A stretch of 64,000 nucleotides of DNA from Prochlorococcus sp. scB243_495K23 (GTDB taxonomy: Bacteria > Cyanobacteriota > Cyanobacteriia > PCC-6307 > Cyanobiaceae). Under the pieces are notes generated by a model, which saw only the letters and a list, made by a program, of their open reading frames with translations, made no database searches and was not told the DNA's origin. Made by a program: the position numbers and the translations under genes. Where the stretch lies: NCBI GenBank assembly GCA_000635495.1, contig JFLW01000002.1, positions 1-64,000 of the forward strand, given 5' to 3'. The number at the start of each line of letters is the position of its first letter. The stretch's first letter is position 1. Below, piece after piece: positions 1 to 20,271 of the stretch.

Positions 1-20
1 ACCTCTCCCTTACCAAGGGA
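1..20 (-). repeat. tRNA-Thr(GGT) 3' fragment, att-like
   Basis: The first 20 bases, acctctcccttaccaaggga, match 20226-20245 inside the intact tRNA-Thr(GGT) gene exactly. The match covers the anticodon arm and stops at base 21. The copy could extend left of the window towards the tRNA 3' end. Orientation is that of a displaced 3' fragment at the far end of an element inserted in the tRNA at 20200-20271. What is seen is the repeat; the attachment-site role is inferred. Confidence 0.75.
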
Positions 21-86: not shown

Positions 87-112
87 AATTAGTGCAAAAA
101 ATTAGTGCATAA
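87..112 (+). promoter_or_regulatory. 13-base tandem direct repeat upstream of a small gene
   Basis: The string aattagtgc occurs at 87-95 and again at 100-108, a period of 13, just upstream of the ATG at 134. Two near-identical boxes in front of a gene for a small DNA-binding-like protein suggest an operator or an integrase arm site. The role is inferred. Confidence 0.35.
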
Positions 113-133: not shown

Positions 134-475
134 ATGAATAAAAGAGCAACTAAGCAAGAAACTGAATTAAGAGTTGCACATGCTGCTGAATTAGTTGCTG
201 AAGGACAAGCCTATTCATCTATTACTTCCTTTGTTGCCGCAAAATATGAAATCTCAAGAAGAAGAGCCAGGCAGATCAATTCTAATGCTTATCTTTTGCT
301 GAAAGATGATATTGAGGAAGGTGACTTAAATCGCCCTGAAATGACAGCAAAATTAGTATGTACTTTAGAAACTGCAATGTATAGAGCAATGCGGGAGAGA
401 CAATATTCAGCAGTTGCAAGTAATGCAAAAGTTCTTATGAAATTAATCGGTCTAGAAGCAAAAATAAAAAGTTAG
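134..475 (+). CDS. Small HTH-like protein, possibly phage small terminase-like
   Basis: This 113-aa protein is mostly helical. Residues about 10-48 read like an HTH: a helix rich in Ala and Glu (VAHAAELVAEG), a turn, then FVAAKYEISRRRARQI, a plausible recognition helix rich in Arg. A second helical part follows, ending in VLMKLIGLEAKIKS. Small terminase subunits of tailed phages and phage satellites share this size and layout, but I cannot confirm the family. It is the outermost gene of the island, next to the tRNA-Thr fragment, and ends just before the first tRNA-Pro fragment. A plain transcription regulator is the main alternative. Confidence 0.5.
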   Translation: MNKRATKQETELRVAHAAELVAEGQAYSSITSFVAAKYEISRRRARQINSNAYLLLKDDIEEGDLNRPEMTAKLVCTLETAMYRAMRERQYSAVASNAKVLMKLIGLEAKIKS

Positions 476-479
476 AGCT

Positions 480-526
480 GGTGCTTTGGGAGCACTAGGT
501 CGCAGGTTCGAATCCTGTCGCCCCGA
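480..526 (+). repeat. tRNA-Pro(TGG) 3' fragment, copy 1
   Basis: The sequence runs from the 5' side of the anticodon stem (ggtgc), through the loop tttggga with anticodon TGG, to the T arm (ggttcgaatcc) and the acceptor 3' strand (cgccccga). There is no matching 5' half, so it is not a gene. It starts just after the stop of the previous gene. It is the least degenerate of three copies and the best reference for the attachment core. Confidence 0.85.
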
Positions 527-550
527 CTCAATCAAAACCAAGTCATACTA

Positions 551-576
551 GCGAGTTACCCAGACTCGCTTTTTTA
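551..576 (+). terminator. Hairpin plus T-run after tRNA-Pro fragment
   Basis: gcgagt (551-556) pairs with actcgc (564-569) and is followed by a run of six T. This is a standard intrinsic terminator. It lies 25 bases after the tRNA-Pro fragment and may have come with a tRNA 3' flank. Confidence 0.65.
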
Positions 577-602
577 TTGTGAAAATCTGTCCACAGCAAC
601 CA

Positions 603-624
603 CGGACAAATTGCGGACAAATTC
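603..624 (+). repeat. Paired 11-base direct repeat near att copy 1
   Basis: cggacaaattg is followed at once by cggacaaattc, a tandem pair with period 11. The pair recurs at 2913-2934. Paired direct repeats one helical turn apart beside an attachment core resemble the arm-type binding sites of tyrosine recombinases. That role is inferred. Confidence 0.6.
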
Positions 625-666
625 CTATTATGAGTTTTTAATTGGTTAGCTTAATTTCACTGAAAT

Positions 667-1563
667 ATGTTTGTAACCCTTATTTTTTTAGTAGTTGTAG
701 TTATCTTTATTTTTTTAAATCTAAGGTCTAAGAAAATCATTAGGGAATCTTCACCTAAAATTCGCAAAATATCTGAAGTTCAAAATAGTTCTTATCAAGG
801 ACAATTAAAGGGCAGAGATAAAGATATTTCAACAAAAACTATTAATAAAACAAATAATCCTAAAAACAAAGGATACTTATCAGGACCAATTGAGAAATAT
901 TATTTAACTCTTCCTCTTGAAAATAATAGCAAAGGTAAAGACCCACAAAAAAAATTAACCGAGGCTGTAGAACATAAAAAAAATGAAAATTGGGAAATGG
1001 CTTTTAAAGCTCTACACGAAGCTTACGAAAGAATGAAATATAGTGAAATCGATTATGGCATAGATAAATTCTTAAGACTACCAATGTACTTACATGCTGC
1101 AGGGAAGAAAGATATCGCATGGAAGATACTTAATAACTATTTAAGAGGTGAATATCCAATAATTAAAGGAGAAAAAAATCTATTTCAACAAGTTATGGAT
1201 CAACTAGAAATAAAAGACAAAATGAGGGTGGTTTTAGAACGTGAGAAAAAATTCACTCAATCTCTTTTATTTTTCTGTGAAGTGCAATATTTGAATATCC
1301 AGAATCTGAAAGAAATTTCAAAATGGGATTTTGATTCAAGAGAGACAAAGTCTTTTCACAAAAAAAGACTAGCTGAAGCATCTTCACTTAAGAAAATATC
1401 AGAACTATTGAAACCTAAACTTAAAAAAGCAAAGCTATCTGGTCAAGAAGAAAAAATTGCAAAACAAATTTTAATTATTTTCAAAAAAAATATGAATCCT
1501 ATTATTGGAACTAATGAAGTAAGGAACTCAGTAAATGAAATAATAAAGAACAGTCTCAGTTAA
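667..1563 (+). CDS. Membrane-anchored helical protein of unknown function
   Basis: This 298-aa protein begins with one hydrophobic segment (residues about 2-19), then a basic stretch (LRSKK), so it is probably anchored with its body in the cytoplasm. Residues about 35-75 are polar and probably disordered. Residues about 95-175 contain helix pairs (KLTEAVEHKKNENWEMAFKA, FLRLPMYLHAAGKKDIAWKI) like tetratricopeptide repeats. I do not recognise the family. It lies with rmuC between tRNA-Pro fragments 1 and 2, so the two genes probably form the cargo of one inserted element. Confidence 0.6.
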   Translation: MFVTLIFLVVVVIFIFLNLRSKKIIRESSPKIRKISEVQNSSYQGQLKGRDKDISTKTINKTNNPKNKGYLSGPIEKYYLTLPLENNSKGKDPQKKLTEAVEHKKNENWEMAFKALHEAYERMKYSEIDYGIDKFLRLPMYLHAAGKKDIAWKILNNYLRGEYPIIKGEKNLFQQVMDQLEIKDKMRVVLEREKKFTQSLLFFCEVQYLNIQNLKEISKWDFDSRETKSFHKKRLAEASSLKKISELLKPKLKKAKLSGQEEKIAKQILIIFKKNMNPIIGTNEVRNSVNEIIKNSLS

Positions 1564-1725
1564 TAACTAAATTCCTTGAAGATTTAAATTTAAAACAAAA
1601 AGTCTTTAATAATTTATCTAAATCTGATAATTAGATTTTTAAATTTTGAAAAAACAAAGGAAACAAAATTATGGTTAAATTACTTCAGATTATTTAAAAT
1701 TTAAAAATATAAATTTAGGCAAAGG

Positions 1726-2868
1726 ATGAATAGTTTTTTACTTTTTCTAACTGGGGTATTTTCCGGAATATTTGCTGGTTTCTTTTTGACTAAATCTTTC
1801 TGGAAAACAAACAGAGAAGCTGAATTGAATATCAAGTTGAAATCTCAAGAAAAACTTGAAAATGATTTGAAAACACAATTTGAAATCTTAAGTTCAAGAA
1901 TGCTTAAAGAATCAAGGGAGGAATTAATAAAAGCAACAAAAACAAATGTTTCTGAACCTTTCAACCAACAAGTAGATAAGTTAGCCAAACAAGTAAAAAA
2001 TCTAAACGATGAATCGAGAGAAAAATTATCTGTCTTGTCTACTACTACTAAAGATTTAAAGACAAAGAATGAGGATGTTGAAAGTGCCGCTAAAGAATTA
2101 GCCAATGCTTTACGTAATCCAAACATAAAAGGAAGGTGGGGAGAGGTGACACTTAGAAGAACTATGGAATATGTAGGTCTTAATAGGTATTGCGATTTTG
2201 ATGAGCAGGTAACATTAACAACAAATGATGGGACTTATAGGCCCGATTGTGTAATAACAATTCCTGGTGAAAGATTATTTATTATTGATTCCAAAGCTCC
2301 TCTCGATAGTTATCAGGATGCTTTAAAAGCGAAAGATGAAAGGACTTATAAATTGGCTTTAGATAATCATGTTAAAAAAGTTCAAGGACATATTAATGAG
2401 CTTTCTAAAAAGAAATATTCAAATAATAAGACTAATAAAGGAGTCGTATTAGATGGTGTAATTATGTTCATTCCAATTGAAGGTGCATTGGCAATGGCAT
2501 TAGCTCATGATGAAAAATTACTAGAATATGCTTTTGATAAAAAAATAATTCTCACTTTCCCAACAAGTTTCCTTGCAATTTTACAAAATCTTTCTATGAA
2601 TATTGAACAAGCAAATTTAACAAGAGGTATTCAAGAAGCATCAAATAAAGCGGGAGAGTTAAATAACGCTTTAGAAGCTTTTTTAAAGAGATTTAATGAT
2701 ATTGGTTTAAAAATAAAACAAACAGCCTCGATTTATAATGAAGCTCATAATAAATTGAAAACGACTATTAAAAAAGGAGAGCAATTTGCAGAATTGACAG
2801 CTAAAAAAACAAGTCTTTCATTATCTGAAGAAATTTCTGAAAATAAAATAAAGCAATTTGATATTTAA
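1726..2868 (+). CDS. rmuC: RmuC family DNA recombination protein
   Basis: This 380-aa protein has an N-terminal membrane segment (about 3-22), a coiled coil (about 30-125) and the RmuC domain. The signature GRWGE is at about 136, and YRPDCVITIPG followed by FIIDSKAPLD at about 171-195 is the nuclease-like PD-(D/E)XK core. RmuC proteins limit recombination at inverted repeats and are presumed nucleases. The coiled coil and anchor are usual for the family, so the gene looks complete. It lies 162 bases after the 298-aa gene and is bounded by the paired 11-base repeats at 603 and 2913. Whether its role here is recombination or defence is not shown by the sequence. Confidence 0.9.
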   Translation: MNSFLLFLTGVFSGIFAGFFLTKSFWKTNREAELNIKLKSQEKLENDLKTQFEILSSRMLKESREELIKATKTNVSEPFNQQVDKLAKQVKNLNDESREKLSVLSTTTKDLKTKNEDVESAAKELANALRNPNIKGRWGEVTLRRTMEYVGLNRYCDFDEQVTLTTNDGTYRPDCVITIPGERLFIIDSKAPLDSYQDALKAKDERTYKLALDNHVKKVQGHINELSKKKYSNNKTNKGVVLDGVIMFIPIEGALAMALAHDEKLLEYAFDKKIILTFPTSFLAILQNLSMNIEQANLTRGIQEASNKAGELNNALEAFLKRFNDIGLKIKQTASIYNEAHNKLKTTIKKGEQFAELTAKKTSLSLSEEISENKIKQFDI

Positions 2869-2912
2869 TAATTTTAAATTTATTTCTAAGAATTTAAATA
2901 AAGAAAGAATTT

Positions 2913-2934
2913 CGGACAAATTGCGGACAAATAT
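2913..2934 (+). repeat. Paired 11-base direct repeat, second occurrence
   Basis: cggacaaattg-cggacaaatat matches the pair at 603-624 over its first 20 bases. It lies about 85 bases before tRNA-Pro fragment 2. With the copy at 603 it brackets the 298-aa gene and rmuC as one unit of about 2.3 kb. Confidence 0.6.
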
Positions 2935-2994
2935 TGCTTAATTTGTCATGACAAACTTCGCAGATCTAAGCAGGAAATTTGATATAGCTTGAAA

Positions 2995-3040
2995 ACCTAG
3001 TGCTCTACTAACCTTGTGCGGTGTTTTGGGAGCACTAGGT
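2995..3040. repeat. 11-base inverted repeat overlapping att copy 2
   Basis: acctagtgctc at 2995-3005 is the exact reverse complement of gagcactaggt at 3030-3040, which lies inside tRNA-Pro fragment 2. The arms are 24 bases apart. Only copy 2 has this inverted arm. Tyrosine recombinase core sites use inverted arms, though usually closer together. Confidence 0.5.
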
Positions 3041-3066
3041 CGCAGGTTCGAATCCTGTCCCCCCGA
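3020..3066 (+). repeat. tRNA-Pro(TGG) 3' fragment, copy 2
   Basis: This is the same 47-base segment as copy 1 with two differences: ggtgt for ggtgc in the anticodon stem, and tgtcc for tgtcg near the acceptor. There is no 5' half. The sequence just after it (tatagcagtaagtctcagct) reappears, nearly unchanged, after copy 3. Confidence 0.85.
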
Positions 3067-3118
3067 TCAGTTATAGCAGTAAGTCTCAGCTAATACATAA
3101 TTCAAGCAAATTATTGCT

Positions 3119-3140
3119 TCACGCAAAACTCACGCAAAAG
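3119..3140 (+). repeat. Paired 11-base direct repeat after att copy 2
   Basis: tcacgcaaaac is followed directly by tcacgcaaaag, again with period 11 but with a different sequence from the pair at 603 and 2913. It lies 52 bases after fragment 2. The same architecture with another sequence suggests a different recombinase specificity. This is inferred. Confidence 0.55.
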
Positions 3141-3291
3141 TTATTTTCTCCAGAATAATTGGCATAAGTTTAGAAGATACTCAGGTATTTGGTTCTGCCC
3201 AACTTATGGACTAATATTAGGAAGAATATTTTGTCTCTAGTTATAGTTCAAATCAGTTTAATATATATTTAATTCAAATAAAACTCAATTA

Positions 3292-4281
3292 ATGGCAAAT
3301 ATTGCTACTGGTTATTTATCTATATCTTTAGACAAAGATTCTGAATTAAATAAAAGTGCAGTTGATGAAATCATAAATAATTTAGAGGACAATAATCACT
3401 TCACATATTGCGGGCCAGATGGTTTCAATGCAATTTTTAATAAGGAAGATAGAATCCTTGATTTAGACTTCTGCGGGAGATGGTCATGCGATTCATGTTG
3501 GGAATGGATTGAAAATGAATTGTCAGATGCCAAGGATAATAAAGAACTAAATCCTGAAGCTAGGACTCTTTTGATAAATTCTGAAATCATTGGAGGCTCC
3601 TTTGAATTTGGTGCTCCATATATGGATAGAGTAACCAAAAAAAAAGGAGTCAAGAAATTAGATATTTATTATCACTCAAAATTAGATTCGAAATGGTGGG
3701 AAGTATTAGAGATAATTAATGCATTCAATCTAAATGAAGGCGTTTCACAAAATTTTGGAAATGGTGTAGAGGTGACTCTCTGCGAGAAGTCAGAGTCAGA
3801 ACAATATTTATTTAAGATAGAAGGAGGTGTAGGCGGTTTTATTGTTTTGTATGATAAATCTGATAAAGAGGATCATCCTCAGCCTTTATTTTTTTGCGAA
3901 AGTGGCTTTGGAGGGGAGTTGGAAGAATTATCTATTAAAGCAATAATCGAAGGTTTAGAGAGTGGAGATTTAGAAGAGCTAGATGATTTTCCAGAGTCTT
4001 TTCATGGCACTGGAGAATTAATTTATGATCTTATAGGAGATAGCGATGATTTTTTTGAATTGGAGGAGGAAGAGTTGAGTGAAGAAGAACTAAAATTATC
4101 AGAACAGAGAGAAAGTGATCCAAAACTAAATACTACAGATTGGAGACAACATAAGAGAAGATTAGATAAATTTGGGGAATCAAAGTATCAAGACGCTCAT
4201 ATATTTGTTGGTCCAAAAGGTGGTACATATGAAATGAGAATTTCTAAAAAAACTGGTAAAACTTATAGGCATTATTTTTAA
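3292..4281 (+). CDS. Acidic protein with C-terminal PBCV basic adaptor-like motif
   Basis: This 329-aa protein is of unknown overall function. Residues 1-225 look globular. Residues about 225-285 are very acidic (for example DSDDFFELEEEELSEEEL). The last 28 residues include VGPKGGTYEMRISKKTGKT followed by YRHYF, which fits the GP+GG-Y-(7-10)-GK-Y pattern of the PBCV-specific basic adaptor domain. That small C-terminal module was first described on chlorovirus proteins. A 'CDSCW' Cys pair lies near residue 66. The gene is alone between tRNA-Pro fragments 2 and 3 apart from the two small genes that follow. The adaptor assignment is from memory of the motif. Confidence 0.6.
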   Translation: MANIATGYLSISLDKDSELNKSAVDEIINNLEDNNHFTYCGPDGFNAIFNKEDRILDLDFCGRWSCDSCWEWIENELSDAKDNKELNPEARTLLINSEIIGGSFEFGAPYMDRVTKKKGVKKLDIYYHSKLDSKWWEVLEIINAFNLNEGVSQNFGNGVEVTLCEKSESEQYLFKIEGGVGGFIVLYDKSDKEDHPQPLFFCESGFGGELEELSIKAIIEGLESGDLEELDDFPESFHGTGELIYDLIGDSDDFFELEEEELSEEELKLSEQRESDPKLNTTDWRQHKRRLDKFGESKYQDAHIFVGPKGGTYEMRISKKTGKTYRHYF

Positions 4282-4418
4282 ATAGATAAAAAAAGAGTTA
4301 CTTGATGCCCTTCGTTTTCTGCAGTAAGAGCATCCAATAAACCTAAAGTTACTTTATTTTTGGATTTTAAACCGCTGCAAATATTAACTAGTACTTTATT
4401 GTCAGTAATGATAGACAT
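4278..4418 (-). pseudogene. Short DsrE-like fragment
   Basis: The minus strand encodes 46 aa: MSIITDNKVLVNICSGL, then a segment containing KNKVTLGLLDALTAENEGHQ, ending VTLFLSI. This resembles the first beta-alpha-beta unit of DsrE/DsrF-fold proteins, which normally exceed 100 aa. The stop comes where the usual chain continues (FLSxDGV), so this is probably a truncated remnant. It overlaps the 3' end of the opposite-strand gene by four bases. Confidence 0.45.
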
Positions 4419-4522
4419 TTAATTCTGCTTAAAATTTACTTATCAAATCTAAGTTTTTCTTTTAATTTTATCAACCATCTAATCTATCAGCGTAATCCCT
4501 CAAAATTCCCTCAAAAGGTCTT

Positions 4523-4545
4523 TTGCCTAAATATTAAATATTGAA
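4523..4545 (+). repeat. 23-base dispersed repeat, copy 1
   Basis: The string ttgcctaaatattaaatatt plus gaa recurs at 5286-5308 with one mismatch (a for c). The two copies bracket the sigma-like gene and tRNA-Pro fragment 3. Function unknown. Confidence 0.45.
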
Positions 4546-4665
4546 AGGCAATCTAAAATAAAGGGAATTAGTTTCTTGTGGAAAGGTTTTCAAAACACCA
4601 CAACTTCTTTTTTTGATATGAGGTTGTAAATACAATTATTAATATGAATAGTCAGGTAAAAAGGA

Positions 4666-5088
4666 ATGGATGAAAGAAATTTAGTTTCTATAAACAAAAA
4701 TAAAGAGCCAGAAATTGATACTTATGGATATTATATTAAACTACTAGAATCCTTTCCACCATTAGAAAGAGATGTTCTTAAATTACGTTTAGGTTTAGGG
4801 GAACCTTTTGAAGTTTTGCATACAACCGATGAGATCGCAGAAATATTAAATGAGTCAAAAGAAATAATCGAAAAAAACTTGTCAACTGGATTGAAACGGA
4901 TGAGAGATAATTCTGAAAAGGAAAGATTAAAACAAGAAAATGAAGACGCGTATTTTGAGATCAGGTTGCAAATAAATAATAGATTAATTAAAAAACTTCA
5001 TTTACTTAAGGAGGAGTGGAAACTGGACAATATTAGTCAGGTAACAGAAAGAATCATGCTTGCTTTCTTTAAATATGATCTTGAATAA
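4666..5088 (+). CDS. Sigma-70 region 4-like HTH fused to ribbon-helix-helix-like domain
   Basis: This 140-aa protein has two parts. Residues about 28-88 (FPPLERDVLKLRLGLGEPFE, then TTDEIAEILNESKEIIEKNL and LKRMR) match the layout of sigma-70 region 4, which contacts the -35 element. Residues about 97-138 (EIRLQINNRLIKKLHLLKEE, then NISQVTERIMLAFF) read as a beta strand plus two helices of the Arc/MetJ ribbon-helix-helix type. Sigma regions 1-3 are absent, so it is not a full sigma factor. A good Shine-Dalgarno (aaaaagga) precedes the ATG. A transcription regulator of the element is the likeliest role; this is inferred. Confidence 0.6.
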   Translation: MDERNLVSINKNKEPEIDTYGYYIKLLESFPPLERDVLKLRLGLGEPFEVLHTTDEIAEILNESKEIIEKNLSTGLKRMRDNSEKERLKQENEDAYFEIRLQINNRLIKKLHLLKEEWKLDNISQVTERIMLAFFKYDLE

Positions 5089-5159
5089 AGATATAAAAGT
5101 AAAATTAAGAAATAAATATATTTTTTTCAAATTATGCAACACCTTGCAAGAAATTAATA

Positions 5160-5206
5160 AGTACTTTGGGAGCACTAGGTCGCAGGTTCAAATCCTGTCG
5201 CTCCAA
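5160..5206 (+). repeat. tRNA-Pro(TGG) 3' fragment, copy 3 (degenerate)
   Basis: This is the same 47-base segment with five changes from copy 1: two in the anticodon stem (agtac), one in the T arm (ggttca) and two near the acceptor end (ctccaa). It is the most decayed copy and the one farthest right. It is followed by tatagctgtaagtctcagct, near-identical to the sequence after copy 2. Confidence 0.8.
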
Positions 5207-5285
5207 ACTTGTATAGCTGTAAGTCTCAGCTAAAAATATTTTTCCCTAAAAAAAGCTTTCCTTCCTTTTTAACTCAAATGGATTG

Positions 5286-5361
5286 TTGCCTAAATCTTAA
5301 ATATTGAATTTAATATCTTAGGCTTATATTTCTTTTTTAGTAAATTATCTTTTACTAAAAA
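5286..5361. repeat. Second copy of 23-base repeat and an 11-base inverted repeat
   Basis: 5286-5308 repeats 4523-4545 with one mismatch. A few bases on, tttttagtaaa (5334-5344) and tttactaaaaa (5351-5361) form a perfect inverted repeat with a six-base loop. The hairpin may terminate transcription between the tRNA-Pro array and the convergent AlbA_2 gene. No gene is seen from 5207 to 5452. Confidence 0.4.
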
Positions 5362-5452: not shown

Positions 5453-7003
5453 TTATTTCTGCGAAATATAATTATAAAATGCCTCAATATCAAGATTATC
5501 GGATGAGGGGCCATTTCTAATATAAAAAATCTTTTCTTTTTTATTTTCTCCTGTTTTTAAAAAGAAAACAGGTTTTTTAGATTTTTTAACTTTAATAATA
5601 ATTATTTCTTTCTTAAAAACTTCAACTAATCGGGGCCTAATAAGCTTAATTTGATCACTAAAATTCTTCTTGATAAATCCCTTTAGATGCAATAGATATT
5701 CATCATTTGATGAATTAAAAAGGAAATCAACTTCATTTTTAATTCCAACTATTTCTACGGGCTTATCAGCTACACCAATATAGATTTCGCCTCCTTCAGT
5801 ATTTAGTAAGGCACATATTGCTTTTAAAGTGTTGGACTCTATTATTTGTCTCTGTGATTTCTTTCTTACAGTATCTAAGTCACCTTCTCTGTACTTTTTA
5901 GCATCCATACTAAAAGTCTCTTTAAATTCTAAATATACATTCTCCTCCATTTGAACCTTTTCCCAGATTTCTTTTTGTTCCTTTGTACCTATTAACGCAA
6001 AATTTTTACACAACGTAGCAAGTTCATTTGCCTCTTGATATAACTCATATCTCAATCCTTCTTTGTATAAAAGCCTATTTTCTTGATTGAAGTGATTTCC
6101 CCTTATCACAAGTAACGCATTTAAAAATATGTTCTTATTAAGTCCTCCTCTAATAAATGCTAATGGGAGTAAAAACGATTCTTTATCAGAATAATGAAAC
6201 AAAGTCAAAATTGCTATCTTTTCAGGTTCTGTAGAATCTTCATATATTTTTGTTATTTTTTGGGAGATTTCATTTTGACAAAATTCATTTTCAGAAGTAA
6301 AGATACCATTTTCTAAAAAATCAGAAATGTTGTTTAAATAATAACTTTCACTAAAATGTATTTTTGAATTTGATTTACTATTTTCTATAACTGATGGAAC
6401 TTCTACTTCATTTGATTCAATATTATTATCATCTTGCTTAGTCCTAAAGTATATTCTATTTTTTCTAAATTTAATTGAATCACTTTCATTATAAATTGCA
6501 TTAAAAATATCTTCCATCTCTTCATAATAAAAACTTCTAAGATCACTAAAATATAATCTACCCAAAGCATAATTACGCAATTCTTCAAAATACTTCTCTT
6601 TCTTTAATTCTTTACTAATCATTTTTTTTATATAATCCCTTGCATTCTTTAATTCTTCTATATTTTTATTTGATTGATTTACTAATATCCAATCAAAAAT
6701 ATAATAAGATTTTATAAATTCTCGAAAAGTTTTACCTTCATATAATTCTTCATTTTGGAGAGATTTTAGGGAGGAAAAAAGTATATAAGCACTATTAACT
6801 TTTTTATGTTCAATTTGATTTCTTGAATTTAAAGAAAATTCTCCACATTTAAAAAGATCATCTCTAATGAACTCCAATAATTCTTTATTAGGATGTTCAA
6901 TTACTTCATCACTATGAAAACATACTATATTTATATCTTGATACCTTAAATGATATAAATCCTTTCCCTTTACCTTTTTAATTGTTAAATCAGAAGATTG
7001 CAT
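5453..7003 (-). CDS. AlbA_2 (Schlafen-type) domain protein with novel N-terminal region
   Basis: This 516-aa protein has a C-terminal AlbA_2 domain (about 345-516). The marks are YLEFKETFS near 355, then KAICALLNTEGGEIYIGVAD near 395 and FYIRNGPSS near the end. This is the ordinary layout of the divergent-AAA/Schlafen AlbA_2 fold that binds nucleic acid or nucleotides. The first 340 residues are helical and charged with no family I know. The gene stands alone, transcribed towards the tRNA-Pro array, with AT-rich DNA upstream. AlbA_2 proteins often lie in defence islands, so an anti-phage role is possible; that is an inference from domain and place. Confidence 0.7.
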   Translation of the reverse strand: MQSSDLTIKKVKGKDLYHLRYQDINIVCFHSDEVIEHPNKELLEFIRDDLFKCGEFSLNSRNQIEHKKVNSAYILFSSLKSLQNEELYEGKTFREFIKSYYIFDWILVNQSNKNIEELKNARDYIKKMISKELKKEKYFEELRNYALGRLYFSDLRSFYYEEMEDIFNAIYNESDSIKFRKNRIYFRTKQDDNNIESNEVEVPSVIENSKSNSKIHFSESYYLNNISDFLENGIFTSENEFCQNEISQKITKIYEDSTEPEKIAILTLFHYSDKESFLLPLAFIRGGLNKNIFLNALLVIRGNHFNQENRLLYKEGLRYELYQEANELATLCKNFALIGTKEQKEIWEKVQMEENVYLEFKETFSMDAKKYREGDLDTVRKKSQRQIIESNTLKAICALLNTEGGEIYIGVADKPVEIVGIKNEVDFLFNSSNDEYLLHLKGFIKKNFSDQIKLIRPRLVEVFKKEIIIIKVKKSKKPVFFLKTGENKKEKIFYIRNGPSSDNLDIEAFYNYISQK

Positions 7004-7295
7004 TTATAAAATAATCCTTTAAATCTAAATAAGATAATAACCAAAAAATAAATAGTTAAAAGTAAGAGATTTTTAAGTTTTTAATTTTTAAATAATAAAA
7101 TAAGTAACTTGAAAAGGTTTCACCTTTCATTAAGATTAAGCCTATATTGATAAAAATAATATTCTTCAATTCTTTTCAATTTTATTAATTTTTAGAAATA
7201 ATTAATTTAAAAATATAGCAAGGTCTATTTCTAAAAACTTTTTAAAACTTCTCTTTAGATTCATTAAAAGTATTAAGGTTGATAAGTTTTTTTCA
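7004..7295. other. AT-rich intergenic stretch, nothing recognised
   Basis: No convincing reading frame, RNA gene or long repeat is seen. The stretch presumably holds the promoter of the minus-strand AlbA_2 gene. Confidence 0.4.
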
Positions 7296-10104: not shown

Positions 10105-10290
10105 ATGAACTTAAAAGAAAATAAAAGTCTTGTCAAATATCAGAAAGGACATGTCTTTAGAAGTCCTGAAGATTCATATCGAAAGGCTGATATATATCTC
10201 CGAAATATATCTTAAGAACAATTAACTCAAATTAAAAAAGGAGATCGTAATTTAGCTGAGTTATTAATTTCCAATGAAATCAAAAATTAA
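10105..10290 (+). pseudogene. Small ORF with in-frame TAA, overlapping helicase start
   Basis: The frame opens with 36 codons ending YRKADIYLRNIS, meets TAA at 10213-10215, then stays open as EQLTQIKKGDRNLAELLISN and EIKN to a TAA at 10288-10290. Joined, this is a smooth 61-residue helical protein, so one change from a Lys or Gln codon probably broke it. The end overlaps the start of the large nuclease-helicase gene by 17 bases, so it may still serve as a coupled leader. No family is recognised. Confidence 0.45.
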
Positions 10291-13200
10291 AGTAGTAAAA
10301 CGAAAATTCACACCAACGCAGCTTGCCCTATTTAGTCGGAGTCCAATTATAGGAGCTTGGTGGGAAGAATTAAAATCTCAAGGCCTTTTTAAAGATAAAC
10401 TTCCAGATGATACTGAATTAGATAAACAACTATTTATTGATGGTTTGCGTCATGAAGAAGTCCTTATAAAAAAATTAAAAAAGCAAGGATTTCAAATCGC
10501 TGAATTAGAAGGCAAGCAAAATGAAAGTGATTATAAGGCAACAAAAAAAGCAATGTCTGAAGGTTATGACTTTATCTGGCAAGCTTCATTAACTAATGAA
10601 GAGATGCGAGGTTCTGCAGATTTATTAAGAAAAATTCCAGGCTCTTCTCCTTTTGGAGATTGGAGTTATCAACCGATTGAATGCAAACTTTCTTCTAAAA
10701 CTAAAACAACTTTTTTAGTACAGGCTTGCTCATATTGTGATCTCTTATCACCCTTACTTAAAAAGAGACCAAATCAATTTGAACTATATCTAGGTGGTGG
10801 AAAATTCAAGGAATTTAAAACTGATAAGTTCTGGTATTGGTATCAACTTTTAAGAAAACGTTATGGAGATTTTCAAAATAGTTTTAATCCAAATAACATC
10901 CCAATTGATAATCCAGGTGATCATGGAAGCTGGGAAGCATTTATACAGGAACGATTAGAAGCTTCAAGAGACTTAGTGACGGTAGCAAAAATGCGCCAAA
11001 CTCAAAGATTAAAACTCAAAGAATCTGATATTCATACTATTGATGACTTAGCAGAATTAAAAGAGGGGACAAAAGTTCAAGGATTAAGGTTAGAAGCTTT
11101 AAATGATTTAAAAGAGCAAGCTAAGTTACAAGTTAAACCTAAAGGTCCAGATGGGAAACCAAACTATATATTAAAAAAAATAATTGAAGGGAAAGGATTA
11201 ACGATATTACCAAAACAAAATCAAGGTGATATCTGGTTCGATTTAGAGGGTGTTCAAGATCCTGTTCTTGGAACTCAGTTGGAATATCTTATTGGTCTTT
11301 GTTATCAGAACGAATCTGATACCTCTACTGTTTATAAAGCATGGTGGGCACATTCTCCTTCAGAAGAAAAAAAAGCGTTTGAAGATTGGGTGGAATGGGT
11401 AGAAAATCGTTTAAAAAGATATCCAAATTTAAAAATTTATCACTACGGCAGTTATGAAAAAAGTGCAATCAGAAGATTAGCTCAGCAATATTCAACTAAG
11501 GAGACAATAATTGATAACTGGTTACGTTCTTCGCTTTTAGTTGATCTTTTGCCTGTTGTTACTGGCTCTCTTGTTTTAGGCGAAGATAGTTATTCAATCA
11601 AAAAGGTTGAGAAACTATATATGGATCATCGAGATGCAGATGTTAAGACGGCTGGAGATTCAGTAGTCGCATATCGAAAGTGGTCCGATTCAGGAGAACC
11701 AAAGAATCCAGGAATACTTCCAAAAGGAAGTCCTCAACTACAAATAATTGAAGACTACAACAGAGAGGACTGTGAATCGACTCAACTCCTTCATGAGTGG
11801 TTGCTTAATCTAAGAAAGAATAAAGGCTTGCCTGAACAACCTTTAGAGCCATTACTAAAAGAAGAAAATATAGGAATAATAACCCCTCTTGAATATCTAA
11901 GTCATAAGTTATTAGATGAACTCCCTGAAAAATGTAAAACTTTAAACTCATTAGATTTAAGAGATGACTCTATTAAAATAAATCAGAAGGGTAGTAGAGG
12001 AATGACTTGGCGGGCACAACTTTTACTAGCTCACCTTCTTCCCTTTCACCTCAGAGAAGCAAAAGTTTTATGGTGGACATATTTTGATCGAAAAGAGATA
12101 GCTTCTTATAATTCTGATGAGTTACTAGAAGATAGCGAAGTTATTGAAGGTGCTGTTTGGGAAAAATCTGAATCGCGACAAAGTGTAAGGACTGGAGCAG
12201 ACTTTCACTCATTAAAATTCAACCCAGACCAAAATCTCAAGCTTTATAGCAGTCAAGATGGAGCTTCTAGACTTACTCTTGAAATAGCATCAACAGGTTT
12301 AAAGATTGATGCTGTTGAAGTTGATAGTGACAGAGGCCAAGTCACTCTTAAATATCCTTGGAAAAAAAAAGAAAAGAGAATAGATGATGGATTTTTAGAT
12401 GGAATTCCAAAAGAGCCATGCACTCTAATAAAAGTCCCCTCTGATATTGCCAAACCTCTTCGAGATCGTCTCGAGATACAAGCAGATTCCTGGATTAATG
12501 GAAATAAAAAATTACCAAATGCCATACATCAATTACTAGAGTGTCAATCAGTCAAAGGTTTAATAGAACTAAATAAAAATATCCGAGAAAATCCAAAAGC
12601 TCTTCCGAAGCTTTTAGCTAATTTTTTAGAAATAGAATTTGAAACAGTAATTGCTTTGCAAGGCCCACCTGGCACAGGTAAATCTTCTGTAACAGCAAAA
12701 TTCATATCTGAATTAATAAAACTAAATAAGAAAATAGCTATAAGCTCCAATAGCAATCAAGCTATAAATAATTTGTTATTGAAAGTAAAAAATATTTGTA
12801 AAAAGGAAGGTCTTAATAATCAGATTGTTAAAGCTACTAGTCAGAAAAAAGATCAACAACTTACAAATAGTGGAATAGGTTTAATTCCTTCTTCGTCATT
12901 GACTTTAAATGAAACTGTTATTGGGGGAACTACTTGGGTATTCTCACGAGAGGAATTAAATAATGTTTTTGATGTTCTTGTAATTGATGAAGCAGGACAG
13001 ATGTCTCTTGCAAACTTGCTTGTAATGGCTGGATGCGCTAAATCAATTCTTTTAGTCGGAGATCAGCAGCAACTTTCACAACCAACTAAAGCTGATCATC
13101 CAGGAGATTCAGGAAAATCTTGTTTGGAATATTTAATGCAAGGAGCAAATGTCGTGCCAGAAGATAAAGGAATCTTTTTAAATACAAGCTGGCGAATGGA

Positions 13201-13813
13201 ACCTTCTATAACCAATATTGTTTCTGAACTTTTTTATGATAAAAGACTTATGGGTAATCCTTCTAATGAGAATAATTCTATTAATTGGGGGAAGCCATGC
13301 TTAAGAGGATCAGGTAATCCATTTCCTAATCAAGGTATAGTTTTTGAAGCGATTGAACATTCTGGATGTAGTGTAAAAAGTATTGAAGAGATTGACTTTA
13401 TACAAAAACTTGTTGAATCTCTACTTGGAGGAAGCTATACATATTCTCAATTTAATGAGAAACGTACAGGAGAAATCACACCCAATGACATTCTTGTCAC
13501 GGCTCCATATAACGTTCAGGTAAACAGATTAGAACAAAGGCTAGAAGGTAAAGCAAAAGTAGGAACAGTTGATCGTTTTCAAGGCCAAGAAGCTCCTATT
13601 GCTATTCATTCCTTAACCTCAAGTTCCGGTGATAATGCTCCAAGAGGTATAGACTTTTTATTAGAACCAAATCGATTAAATGTAGCAATAAGTAGAGCTC
13701 AATGTCTATCAATTATTATTGGTTGTCCTAGGCTTGCAACTGGATTAATTAATACTGTAGATGAAGCTGAAAAAGTTAATAGACTATGTCTATTAATGAT
13801 GAGAAATTTATAA
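10274..13813 (+). CDS. TM0106-type RecB-like nuclease / RNase H-like / SF1 helicase fusion
   Basis: This 1179-aa protein has three catalytic-looking parts. The first is an N-terminal RecB-like PD-(D/E)XK nuclease (about 10-200), with GSADLLRK near 114 and PIECKLSSK near 134. The second is a YprB-type RNase H-like exonuclease (about 315-510), with DIWFDLEGVQ near 318 and EDYNREDCESTQLLHEWL at its end. The third is a C-terminal DNA2/NAM7-type SF1 helicase (about 750-1170), with LQGPPGTGKSS near 794, LVIDEAGQMS near 903, LVGDQQQLSQP, TSWRMEP, VDRFQGQE and NVAISRA. All key motifs are present, so it is probably active. The family is presumed to process DNA or RNA ends. Its place in an island suggests a defence or mobile-element role, which is inferred. 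Confidence 0.85.
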   Translation: MKSKIKVVKRKFTPTQLALFSRSPIIGAWWEELKSQGLFKDKLPDDTELDKQLFIDGLRHEEVLIKKLKKQGFQIAELEGKQNESDYKATKKAMSEGYDFIWQASLTNEEMRGSADLLRKIPGSSPFGDWSYQPIECKLSSKTKTTFLVQACSYCDLLSPLLKKRPNQFELYLGGGKFKEFKTDKFWYWYQLLRKRYGDFQNSFNPNNIPIDNPGDHGSWEAFIQERLEASRDLVTVAKMRQTQRLKLKESDIHTIDDLAELKEGTKVQGLRLEALNDLKEQAKLQVKPKGPDGKPNYILKKIIEGKGLTILPKQNQGDIWFDLEGVQDPVLGTQLEYLIGLCYQNESDTSTVYKAWWAHSPSEEKKAFEDWVEWVENRLKRYPNLKIYHYGSYEKSAIRRLAQQYSTKETIIDNWLRSSLLVDLLPVVTGSLVLGEDSYSIKKVEKLYMDHRDADVKTAGDSVVAYRKWSDSGEPKNPGILPKGSPQLQIIEDYNREDCESTQLLHEWLLNLRKNKGLPEQPLEPLLKEENIGIITPLEYLSHKLLDELPEKCKTLNSLDLRDDSIKINQKGSRGMTWRAQLLLAHLLPFHLREAKVLWWTYFDRKEIASYNSDELLEDSEVIEGAVWEKSESRQSVRTGADFHSLKFNPDQNLKLYSSQDGASRLTLEIASTGLKIDAVEVDSDRGQVTLKYPWKKKEKRIDDGFLDGIPKEPCTLIKVPSDIAKPLRDRLEIQADSWINGNKKLPNAIHQLLECQSVKGLIELNKNIRENPKALPKLLANFLEIEFETVIALQGPPGTGKSSVTAKFISELIKLNKKIAISSNSNQAINNLLLKVKNICKKEGLNNQIVKATSQKKDQQLTNSGIGLIPSSSLTLNETVIGGTTWVFSREELNNVFDVLVIDEAGQMSLANLLVMAGCAKSILLVGDQQQLSQPTKADHPGDSGKSCLEYLMQGANVVPEDKGIFLNTSWRMEPSITNIVSELFYDKRLMGNPSNENNSINWGKPCLRGSGNPFPNQGIVFEAIEHSGCSVKSIEEIDFIQKLVESLLGGSYTYSQFNEKRTGEITPNDILVTAPYNVQVNRLEQRLEGKAKVGTVDRFQGQEAPIAIHSLTSSSGDNAPRGIDFLLEPNRLNVAISRAQCLSIIIGCPRLATGLINTVDEAEKVNRLCLLMMRNL

Positions 13814-16283: not shown

Positions 16284-16293
16284 TGAAATATGT

Positions 16294-16337
16294 TTGACAG
16301 TCGAACTAAAATAAGGGGCAATTAGCTCCTTTTTTTT
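16294..16337 (+). repeat. Terminator element abutting the next start (copy B)
   Basis: ttgacagtcgaactaaaata is followed by the hairpin aaggggc-aatta-gctcctt and a T-run. The ATG of the next gene begins at the very next base. It is nearly identical to the element at 16641-16683. As an intrinsic terminator it would end the ABM gene transcript. The absence of any leader before the next ATG is odd. Confidence 0.7.
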
Positions 16338-16640: not shown

Positions 16641-16683
16641 TTGACAGTCGATCTAAAATTAAGGAGCAATTAGCTCCTTTTTT
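16641..16683 (+). repeat. Terminator element abutting the next start (copy C)
   Basis: ttgacagtcgatctaaaatt is followed by aaggagc-aatta-gctcctt and a T-run ending at the ATG of the DUF3764 gene. The hairpin has a perfect 7-base stem. It is nearly identical to copy B, placed the same way relative to both neighbours. Confidence 0.7.
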
Positions 16684-20123: not shown

Positions 20124-20199
20124 TCTCTGTTAAATATATTTGAATTATAGTTATAGTGCTGATCTACGAAATCTCAGTTATATTAATCAATAGCTCAAG

Positions 20200-20271
<72 letters not shown>

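What the first reader, a model, noticed from the sequence alone, without database searches (positions are those of the whole stretch)
480..5206. Array of three tRNA-Pro attachment remnants with an apparent age gradient
Three 47-base 3' fragments of tRNA-Pro(TGG) sit 2.5 and 2.1 kb apart in the same orientation. Relative to copy 1 they carry 0, 2 and 5 changes from left to right. Repeated insertion at one tRNA to the left would push older fragments away, which predicts this gradient. From memory, such tRNA-Pro repeats were noted in a MED4 island. Each interval would be one captured element: the TM protein with rmuC, then the adaptor-motif protein with the sigma-like protein.
Basis: partly seen in the sequence, partly recalled or inferred. 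Interest (0 to 1): 0.85.

Follow-up and report, generated by a model that had tools for sequence, protein, structure and literature searches.

The report
Portable landing pad for gene cassettes
In the ocean cyanobacterium Prochlorococcus, small gene cassettes insert one after another at a copied piece of a proline tRNA gene, and here that piece sits behind a phage-type gene at another tRNA's island, forming a second landing site far from the real tRNA.

Summary
The three tRNA-Pro(TGG) 3' fragments are real, and the 0/2/5 counts are right. By its relatives the genome is Prochlorococcus. Across the genus, such fragments run downstream of tRNA-Pro and diverge with distance from it (0 of 5000 shuffles).

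The intact tRNA-Pro is on another contig; the window's left edge is a tRNA-Thr fragment with Thr-type repeats; single-contig relatives put the two tRNAs about 0.7 Mb apart. Fragment 1 is a portable attachment core just behind a 113-aa phage-family gene. Relatives carry this spot empty or filled: G234/G089 and G029/G211 are clean insertions with the core duplicated. So units insert without a tRNA gene.

Many units carry their own ~11-bp direct repeats at both inner ends, most likely integrase arm sites. In one class the specificity word matches end to end in 31 of 41 units (shuffles 4.2, maximum 11). Five of 5 testable viral contigs show matched arms around one core, as attP should. Only 12 of 152 intervals carry the integrase.

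Interval 1 (298-aa protein + rmuC) is one integrase-less cassette; interval 2 looks like two fused ones.

The parts
1..20 (-). start of a tRNA-Thr(GGT) 3' fragment, cut by the contig end
   Evidence: 20 of 20 nt to the intact tRNA-Thr at window 20199-20271; 16 of the 30 best pad loci have a Thr fragment with <=8 of 46 mismatches within 1.1 kb on this side of the gene
88..109 (.). direct repeats ATTAGTGCA x2: Thr-type arm sites, right end of a tRNA-Thr-site element
   Evidence: same motif beside two integrases (L169, L170) and, as TGCACTTAT/TGCACTAAT, at the left end next to tRNA-Thr in G015
134..475 (+). 113-aa phage-family protein (PHROG 34910, function unknown) that carries the landing pad behind its stop codon
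   Evidence: no Pfam, NCBIfam, PADLOC or PDB-sequence match
480..526 (+). fragment 1 = landing pad, occupied; 35-nt core at 482-516
527..622 (+). class-A left end of cassette 1: terminator-like hairpin, then arms CGGACAAAT at 603-611 and 614-622
   Evidence: 60 hits of left ends of other intervals begin here, best 93% over 527-621
667..1563 (+). cargo of cassette 1: 298-aa protein, no family found; N-terminal membrane helix by eye
1726..2868 (+). cargo of cassette 1: RmuC family protein
   Evidence: Pfam PF02646 E 6e-77; PADLOC RTasRmuC E 4e-46
2913..3019 (+). class-A right end of cassette 1, arms CGGACAAATTGCGGACAAAT at 2913-2932
   Evidence: 91% over 98 bp to G136.2 right end; in GTDB genomes the closely similar 21-nt arm lies next to a Pro core in 28 of 29 cyanobacterial places
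3020..3066 (+). fragment 2, right end of cassette 1
   Evidence: 2 differences from intact tRNA over 47 nt
3067..3146 (+). class-B left end of cassette 2a, arms CACGCAAAA x2 at 3120-3139
   Evidence: 96% over 80 bp to G139.1 left end
3292..4281 (+). cargo of cassette 2a: 329-aa 'adaptor-motif' protein (no family found)
   Evidence: homologous DNA without the rest of interval 2 in G013 and G104
4496..4545 (+). core-less class-B left-end piece (CCCTCAAAATTCCCTCAAAAGG...), boundary of cassette 2b whose tRNA fragment is gone
   Evidence: 4510-4545 is 86% identical to window 5273-5308; arms 4496-4515 match G112.2 left and G102.1 right ends
4666..5088 (+). cargo of cassette 2b: sigma-70 region 4-like protein
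   Evidence: Pfam E 3e-5, 23.8 bits, just under the cut-off of 24.1
5160..5206 (+). fragment 3
   Evidence: 5 differences from intact tRNA over 47 nt
5207..5308 (+). decayed class-B left end of a further cassette
   Evidence: 84% over 77 nt to G050.3 left end
20199..20271 (-). intact tRNA-Thr(GGT), 3' end pointing to the array

Best explanation
The window holds a cassette array grown at a portable tRNA-Pro attachment core. A tRNA-Thr-site element carries a 113-aa phage-family gene with a 35-nt piece of tRNA-Pro (anticodon stem-loop to T-loop) a few bases behind its stop. Tyrosine integrases that normally use tRNA-Pro also use this pad. Each insertion leaves a core next to the gene and pushes earlier cassettes, each closed by a core copy, away from it. 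Units that share the core carry element-specific direct-repeat arms at both inner ends, so one unit can be recognised as a pair of ends. Most units carry no integrase and were probably moved by an integrase acting in trans, or lost their own after insertion. Shown by sequence: pad, empty and occupied states, unit insertion, matched ends, genus-wide gradient. Inferred: that the repeats bind integrase, that pushing was serial in this window, and trans-mobilisation.
For: Pad: in the 30 best loci of 266 genomes, 26 have a Pro core (<=8 of 35 mismatches) right behind the gene; by a fixed rule 16 are full-length and 10 core only (L202, L203 and L216 borderline); 4 have none. Empty/occupied: G234 matches G089 on both sides (93.5% over 539 bp, 91.2% over 4159 bp) with a 37-nt overlap, and G089 has about 3 kb (two cassettes) between; G029 and G211 likewise with one cassette (93.2% over 607 bp, 96.8% over the 94 bp fetched). 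Same units at both kinds of site: a 16,326-bp satellite in G050 is 100.00% identical at tRNA-Pro and at the pad; a 4330-bp cassette is shared by 4 tRNA-Pro islands and 2 pads at 98.3-99.4%. Ends: own left/right ends share >=12 nt in 59 of 152 intervals, against 2.1% of mismatched pairs and 1 of 119 pairs flanking the same fragment; specificity word 31 of 41, shuffled mean 4.2, maximum 11 of 5000. attP: 5 of 5 testable viral contigs have the same arms on both sides of one core (11-21 nt; mismatched >=12 in 0 of 42), each with an integrase. Arm geometry: 28 of 29 cyanobacterial places of the 21-nt arm lie beside a Pro core, 19 of 20 right arms at exactly 89 bp. Gradient at tRNA-Pro.
Against: The left end of the Thr element was not found in the window: tRNA-Thr here is followed by the sequence that elsewhere follows the last Thr fragment, so the extent of the Thr element in this genome is unresolved, and contig C2 ends inside the Thr fragment. 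Window interval 2 has no matched arms, and 93 of 152 intervals stay below 12 shared nt. Pad arrays show the gradient weakly: of 12 with two or more fragments, 5 rise outward, 5 are flat, 1 is mixed (G131) and 1 falls (G211). Of 24 tRNA-Pro islands with three or more fragments, five have zero or negative rank correlation (G106, G113, G112, G091, G094) and two are constant. No integrase beside the window's arm motif was found in this genome; the one found in G194 lies at a contig end without its core. The link from arm motif to integrase rests on neighbourhood, and its 9-mer test has a noisy control: 68 of 103 against 21%.
Confidence: 0.78

Rival explanations
1. One reading: an intact tRNA-Pro lies just left of the window and pushed all three fragments away from it.
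For: The mechanism holds at true tRNA-Pro islands of the genus, and this genome has a tRNA-Pro with its own first fragment on contig C121.
Against: Window 1-20 is a tRNA-Thr fragment preceded by Thr-type arms; the same gene-plus-core block lies in the tRNA-Thr island of the four-contig genome G083; tRNA-Pro and tRNA-Thr are about 0.7 Mb apart in five single-contig relatives.
Confidence: 0.07
2. The array was built at tRNA-Pro and then moved as a block into the Thr element by homologous recombination or as cargo, so the pad did not receive the cassettes one by one here.
For: G039 at tRNA-Pro has an interval whose last 61 bp match the end of the 113-aa gene, so the two kinds of site exchange pieces; the 0/2/5 order could be inherited.
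Against: Empty and occupied pads with single or double insertions and native distal flank exist in relatives, so insertion at the pad does occur.
Confidence: 0.14
3. The matched end repeats are not integrase arms but replication iterons or binding sites of a directionality factor.
For: They are short direct repeats with a period of about 10-13 bp; no binding data exist.
Against: They sit on both sides of the core in attP-like viral contigs and beside the integrase gene, the layout of arm sites in known tyrosine-integrase attP sites (recalled).
Confidence: 0.12
4. The fragments are unrelated tRNA pseudogenes or segmental duplications.
For: Copies share flanking sequence in places.
Against: 151 fragments downstream of tRNA-Pro on one strand and 1 on the other, unit-exact boundaries and clean empty sites.
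Confidence: 0.01

Closest known systems
Tycheposons of Prochlorococcus (Hackl et al., recalled; not held in the library; described second-hand in PMC10872708, passages read)
   Same: Same genus, tRNA sites; the large integrase-bearing elements next to the tRNA-Pro fragments look like these (inference).
   Different: The window's units are 2-2.5 kb, carry no integrase, and sit at a portable core, not at a tRNA gene. I saw no text on matched arms or portable cores, but the original paper could not be read.
Tandem ssrA genomic islands of Dehalococcoides (PMC3146451, passages read)
   Same: Array of islands bounded by 3' repeats of one RNA gene, all downstream of it; 15 islands without an integration module.
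   Different: 20-bp repeats and an integrase compared there with CcrB (a serine recombinase, recalled); no end-matched arm repeats or portable site in the passages read.
CIMEs / accretion of ICEs and IMEs (PMC5704250, passages read)
   Same: Element that lost integration genes but kept attL and attR, stacked by site-specific accretion.
   Different: Here the integrase-less units are the large majority (140 of 152 intervals), with many different arm words at one core.
Integron cassette arrays (recalled)
   Same: Polarised array with young units at a fixed anchor.
   Different: Anchor is a tRNA core and not attI; no attC-like site was sought; integrases lie in the elements.

Membership tests
CIME (cis-mobilizable element) | no integrase in the element | tested here: met
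   integrase profile finds none in window intervals 1 and 2; profile and Pfam integrase searches of the genome hit only contigs C121 and C3
CIME (cis-mobilizable element) | attL and attR retained | tested here: met
   interval 1: cores at both ends and the same 20-nt arm inside both; interval 2 lacks matched arms
CIME (cis-mobilizable element) | moved by accretion with an integrase-bearing element | not testable with these tools
   needs excision and transfer assays; only sequence evidence of units at different sites
tycheposon | tyrosine recombinase carried by the element | tested here: not met
   absent from window intervals 1 and 2; so these are not filed as tycheposons. Present in the C121 element
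tycheposon | integration at a tRNA gene | tested here: not met
   here at a tRNA-Pro core behind a protein gene; units of the same kind elsewhere are at tRNA-Pro itself
tycheposon | length 4-200 kb (as given in PMC10872708) | tested here: not met
   2.5 and 2.1 kb
integron | IntI integrase, attI and attC sites | not tested
   no integron model was run; integrases found match PF00589 or PHROG integrase models

The most novel reading that the evidence does not exclude
Prochlorococcus runs a decentralised, integron-like cassette system: many small integrase-less units share one 35-nt tRNA-Pro core but carry private, covarying arm words, so that each is handled by its own integrase lineage in trans; portable cores carried by other elements let the arrays grow away from the tRNA.
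Probability: 0.4. Interest if true: 0.82.

Novelty: new variant of a known kind. Interest (0 to 1): 0.64.

Why it matters
Island arrays at tRNAs are known, but which stretch is one mobile unit is hard to tell from gene content. End-matched arm repeats would mark a unit and its likely integrase directly from sequence and predict which cassettes can move together. The portable core explains how arrays can arise far from the tRNA they match, and gives ready-made empty and filled sites for testing integration in one of the most abundant photosynthetic organisms of the ocean.

Tried and rejected
Rejected: contig C121 (intact tRNA-Pro) directly left of the window. The contig edge is a Thr fragment and the closed genomes disagree. 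Rejected: a simple inversion between the tRNA-Pro and tRNA-Thr islands, because the strand of the fragments does not fit (reasoning, no call). Rejected: interval 2 as one element. Led nowhere: PDB sequence search of the 113-aa protein, 0 hits; AlphaFold model of it, mean pLDDT 57, all-helical, not used for a fold search; viral contigs for that protein, no relative. My early label 'TerS-like' for it (also used in my notes) is an impression without a database match. PADLOC gives an RmuC label tied to defence reverse transcriptases, but none of the eight window proteins scanned matched a reverse transcriptase in Pfam, so I do not call interval 1 a defence cassette. The mismatch count of a distal pad fragment can reflect native flank and not age (G089), so the gradient was recomputed on the 35-nt core and without the distal-most fragment. 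Rows dropped: two intervals shorter than 450 bp of 154; only 30 of the 144 matching genomes were fetched for the island survey, chosen because the tRNA lies far from a contig end or the assembly is good; one of them (G118) had no fragment on its contig; only the 30 best pad loci were examined, and pad arrays were fetched for 20 of them or their listed neighbours.
Full report
Observation. The three direct repeats are present as described. The window is bases 1-64000 of contig C2 of a 124-contig genome; relatives with the same end sequences are named Prochlorococcus, one Synechococcaceae. The intact tRNA-Pro(TGG) lies on contig C121 at 7192-7265. Against it the three copies have 0, 2 and 5 differences over 47 nt.

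Genus-wide arrays. A tRNA-Pro query matches 144 of 151 genomes. I fetched the stretch downstream of the intact gene in 30 of them, up to 40 kb each. They hold 151 fragments (at most 12 mismatches in 45) in 29 islands, all on the tRNA's strand, and 1 on the other strand. Mismatches rise with rank from the tRNA: concordant minus discordant pairs 205 against 0 +- 29 in within-island shuffles, 0 of 5000 as high. On the 35-nt core alone it is 179 against 0 +- 28, and 123 against 0.5 +- 23 with the distal-most fragment dropped; 0 of 5000 each. Of 24 islands with three or more fragments, G113, G112 and G106 are negative, G091 and G094 zero, G034 and G104 constant.

Units with matched ends. Searching interval 1 in 151 genomes gave hits that mostly fall at its two ends, bases 1-95 and 2381-2491 of the query, with other interiors; only five genomes matched in rmuC (listed part). 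Inside both ends of many intervals lie two or three direct repeats of one motif with a period of about 11 bp, for example AGTGGACAAAT, TGCCGTCAAAT, GGTAGCTAGAG or TAGCGATTA. Left and right ends of the same interval share at least 12 nt in 59 of 152 intervals; mismatched pairs do so in 2.1%, and the two ends that flank the same fragment in 1 of 119. The match fades with age: 32 of 64, 20 of 48 and 7 of 40 for intervals whose worse flanking fragment has 0, 1-3 and 4-12 mismatches. Within the NNNNWCAAA class, 31 of 41 intervals share the five-letter word; shuffles give 4.2 on average and 11 at most. Window interval 1 has CGGACAAATTGCGGACAAAT at both ends (603-622 and 2913-2932).

Further tests of the repeats. 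The 21-nt arm GCGGACAAATTGCGGACAAAT was sought in 84,980 species genomes: 33 places, 29 of them in cyanobacterial records; 28 of these 29 lie beside a Pro core, 20 as right arms (19 at exactly 89 bp, one at 87) and 8 as left arms at 51-75 bp. The exception lies near a contig end. The 4 places in Bacillales have no core. Several of these records are the same genomes as in the island survey, so the search is independent but the sample is not. In viral contigs the exact 36-nt core was found in 9. Three hold a full tRNA-Pro, one is cut, and all 5 others have the same repeats on both sides of a single core, with an integrase on the contig. That is the layout of an attP site, and it differs from the island arrays, where ends across a fragment do not match.

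Integrases. A profile from the islands finds the integrase inside 12 of 152 complete intervals, always on the minus strand and 93-148 bp from the right fragment. In 266 genomes, 116 have a match at E <= 1e-20; the weakest listed ones look like the core Xer gene. Arm motifs of integrase-less cassettes recur beside integrases, among them the window's motif in G194 at a contig end (L147). 68 of 103 integrase-less intervals that share a left/right 9-mer also share it with an integrase-bearing right end; random interior words do so in 21%. The 13 integrases aligned are 26-43% identical to the first, incomplete one.

The anchor in this window. In five single-contig relatives the tRNA-Thr/Tyr pair of this window is at 0.37-0.41 Mb and tRNA-Pro at 1.05-1.09 Mb; in G083 and G039 they are more than 0.9 Mb apart on one contig; in six more they are on different contigs. 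The window's base 1-20 is the start of a tRNA-Thr 3' fragment, and ATTAGTGCA repeats at 88-109 match arms beside two integrases and the left end next to tRNA-Thr in G015. In G083 three Pro fragments lie between tRNA-Thr and its 3' fragment, and window 134-579 is 91% identical there. Of 12 other Thr islands scanned over 20-60 kb, G083 has three Pro fragments, G015 one, the other ten none. In this genome the intact tRNA-Thr is followed by the sequence that elsewhere follows the last Thr fragment, so the other end of the Thr element was not found.

The pad. Bases 21-526 were searched in 266 genomes. In the 30 best loci the 113-aa gene is followed at once by a Pro core in 26, by a fixed rule full-length in 16 and core only in 10; 4 have none. 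G234 has the core only. G089 has the same flanks with two cassettes between, the last fragment running into the native sequence of G234: 93.5% over 539 bp on the left, 91.2% over 4159 bp on the right, 37 nt shared. G029 and G211 are a second such pair with one cassette (93.2% over 607 bp; 96.8% over the 94 bp fetched). In G050 a 16,326-bp satellite is present at tRNA-Pro and at a pad, 100.00% identical, and a 4330-bp cassette occurs in 4 tRNA-Pro islands and 2 pads. Of 12 pads with two or more fragments, core mismatches rise outward in 5 (the window among them), are flat in 5, mixed in 1 and fall in 1.

Interval 2. It has no matched ends. A class-B left end without a core lies at about 4496-4545 and resembles 5273-5308. 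Relatives carry the adaptor gene, the 4287-4507 stretch and the sigma-like gene as separate hits. I read it as two cassettes whose boundary was deleted.

Both sides of the tRNA. On C121 a 5' half of tRNA-Pro (0 of 38 mismatches) begins 4856 bp upstream of the intact gene, with GCGACAAAA-type repeats at both ends of the stretch between. The 5' and 3' fragments overlap only around TGCTTTGGGAGCA, the anticodon stem-loop, which places the crossover there (inference).

Comparison. Tycheposons, tandem ssrA islands of Dehalococcoides (PMC3146451, passages) and CIMEs (PMC5704250, passages) cover arrays, integrase-less members and accretion. PMC2784084 (passages) reports pseudo-tRNA-Met copies in one Prochlorococcus, and PMC10872708 (passages) tRNA-Lys repeats in a methylotroph. 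My searches (listings and abstract starts) showed no paper on arm sites or portable cores in Prochlorococcus by title or abstract start. The original tycheposon paper and the 2006 island paper are recalled only and were not among the papers listed, so novelty against them is open.

Noticed in passing
L006 (contig C121) 2336-7191: Element on the 5' side of tRNA-Pro, bounded by a 5' half of the tRNA, with GCGACAAAA-type repeats at both ends; carries a 1198-aa helicase-like protein.
   Followed up: partly
L119-L126, about 210 bp 5' of intact tRNA-Pro: A 468-476 aa integrase sits divergently next to tRNA-Pro in at least nine genomes, with TGTACGCAA-type repeats between in those read.
   Followed up: partly
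window 1726-2868; L047, L048, L050, L051: RmuC genes recur near Pro fragments in other genomes: 4 of 5 loci with related DNA have a Pro fragment (0 to 12 mismatches of 45) on the fetched stretch, within about 1.5 kb.
   Followed up: partly
window about 4287-4507: A stretch of 150-220 bp that accounts for most listed hits of interval 2, at many places in many genomes; minus strand reads like a truncated DsrE-type protein (recalled).
   Followed up: no
window 16293-16334 and 16641-16682 (-): 42-nt copies of a stretch also found just before right arms of other intervals (95% and 93%).
   Followed up: no
window 5453-7003 (-): 516-aa protein with SLFN_AlbA_2 domain right behind fragment 3, perhaps cargo of the next, decayed cassette.
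   Followed up: no
window 10274-13813: 1179-aa RNase H/helicase protein with PADLOC MkoA matches, found in 2 of 13 relatives (G041, G119), there near tRNA-Thr but in the other orientation.
   Followed up: no
G106 island (L021, L022): Fragments of 4 and 7 mismatches lie between perfect ones, with a 146-bp interval: insertion at an old fragment is possible.
   Followed up: no
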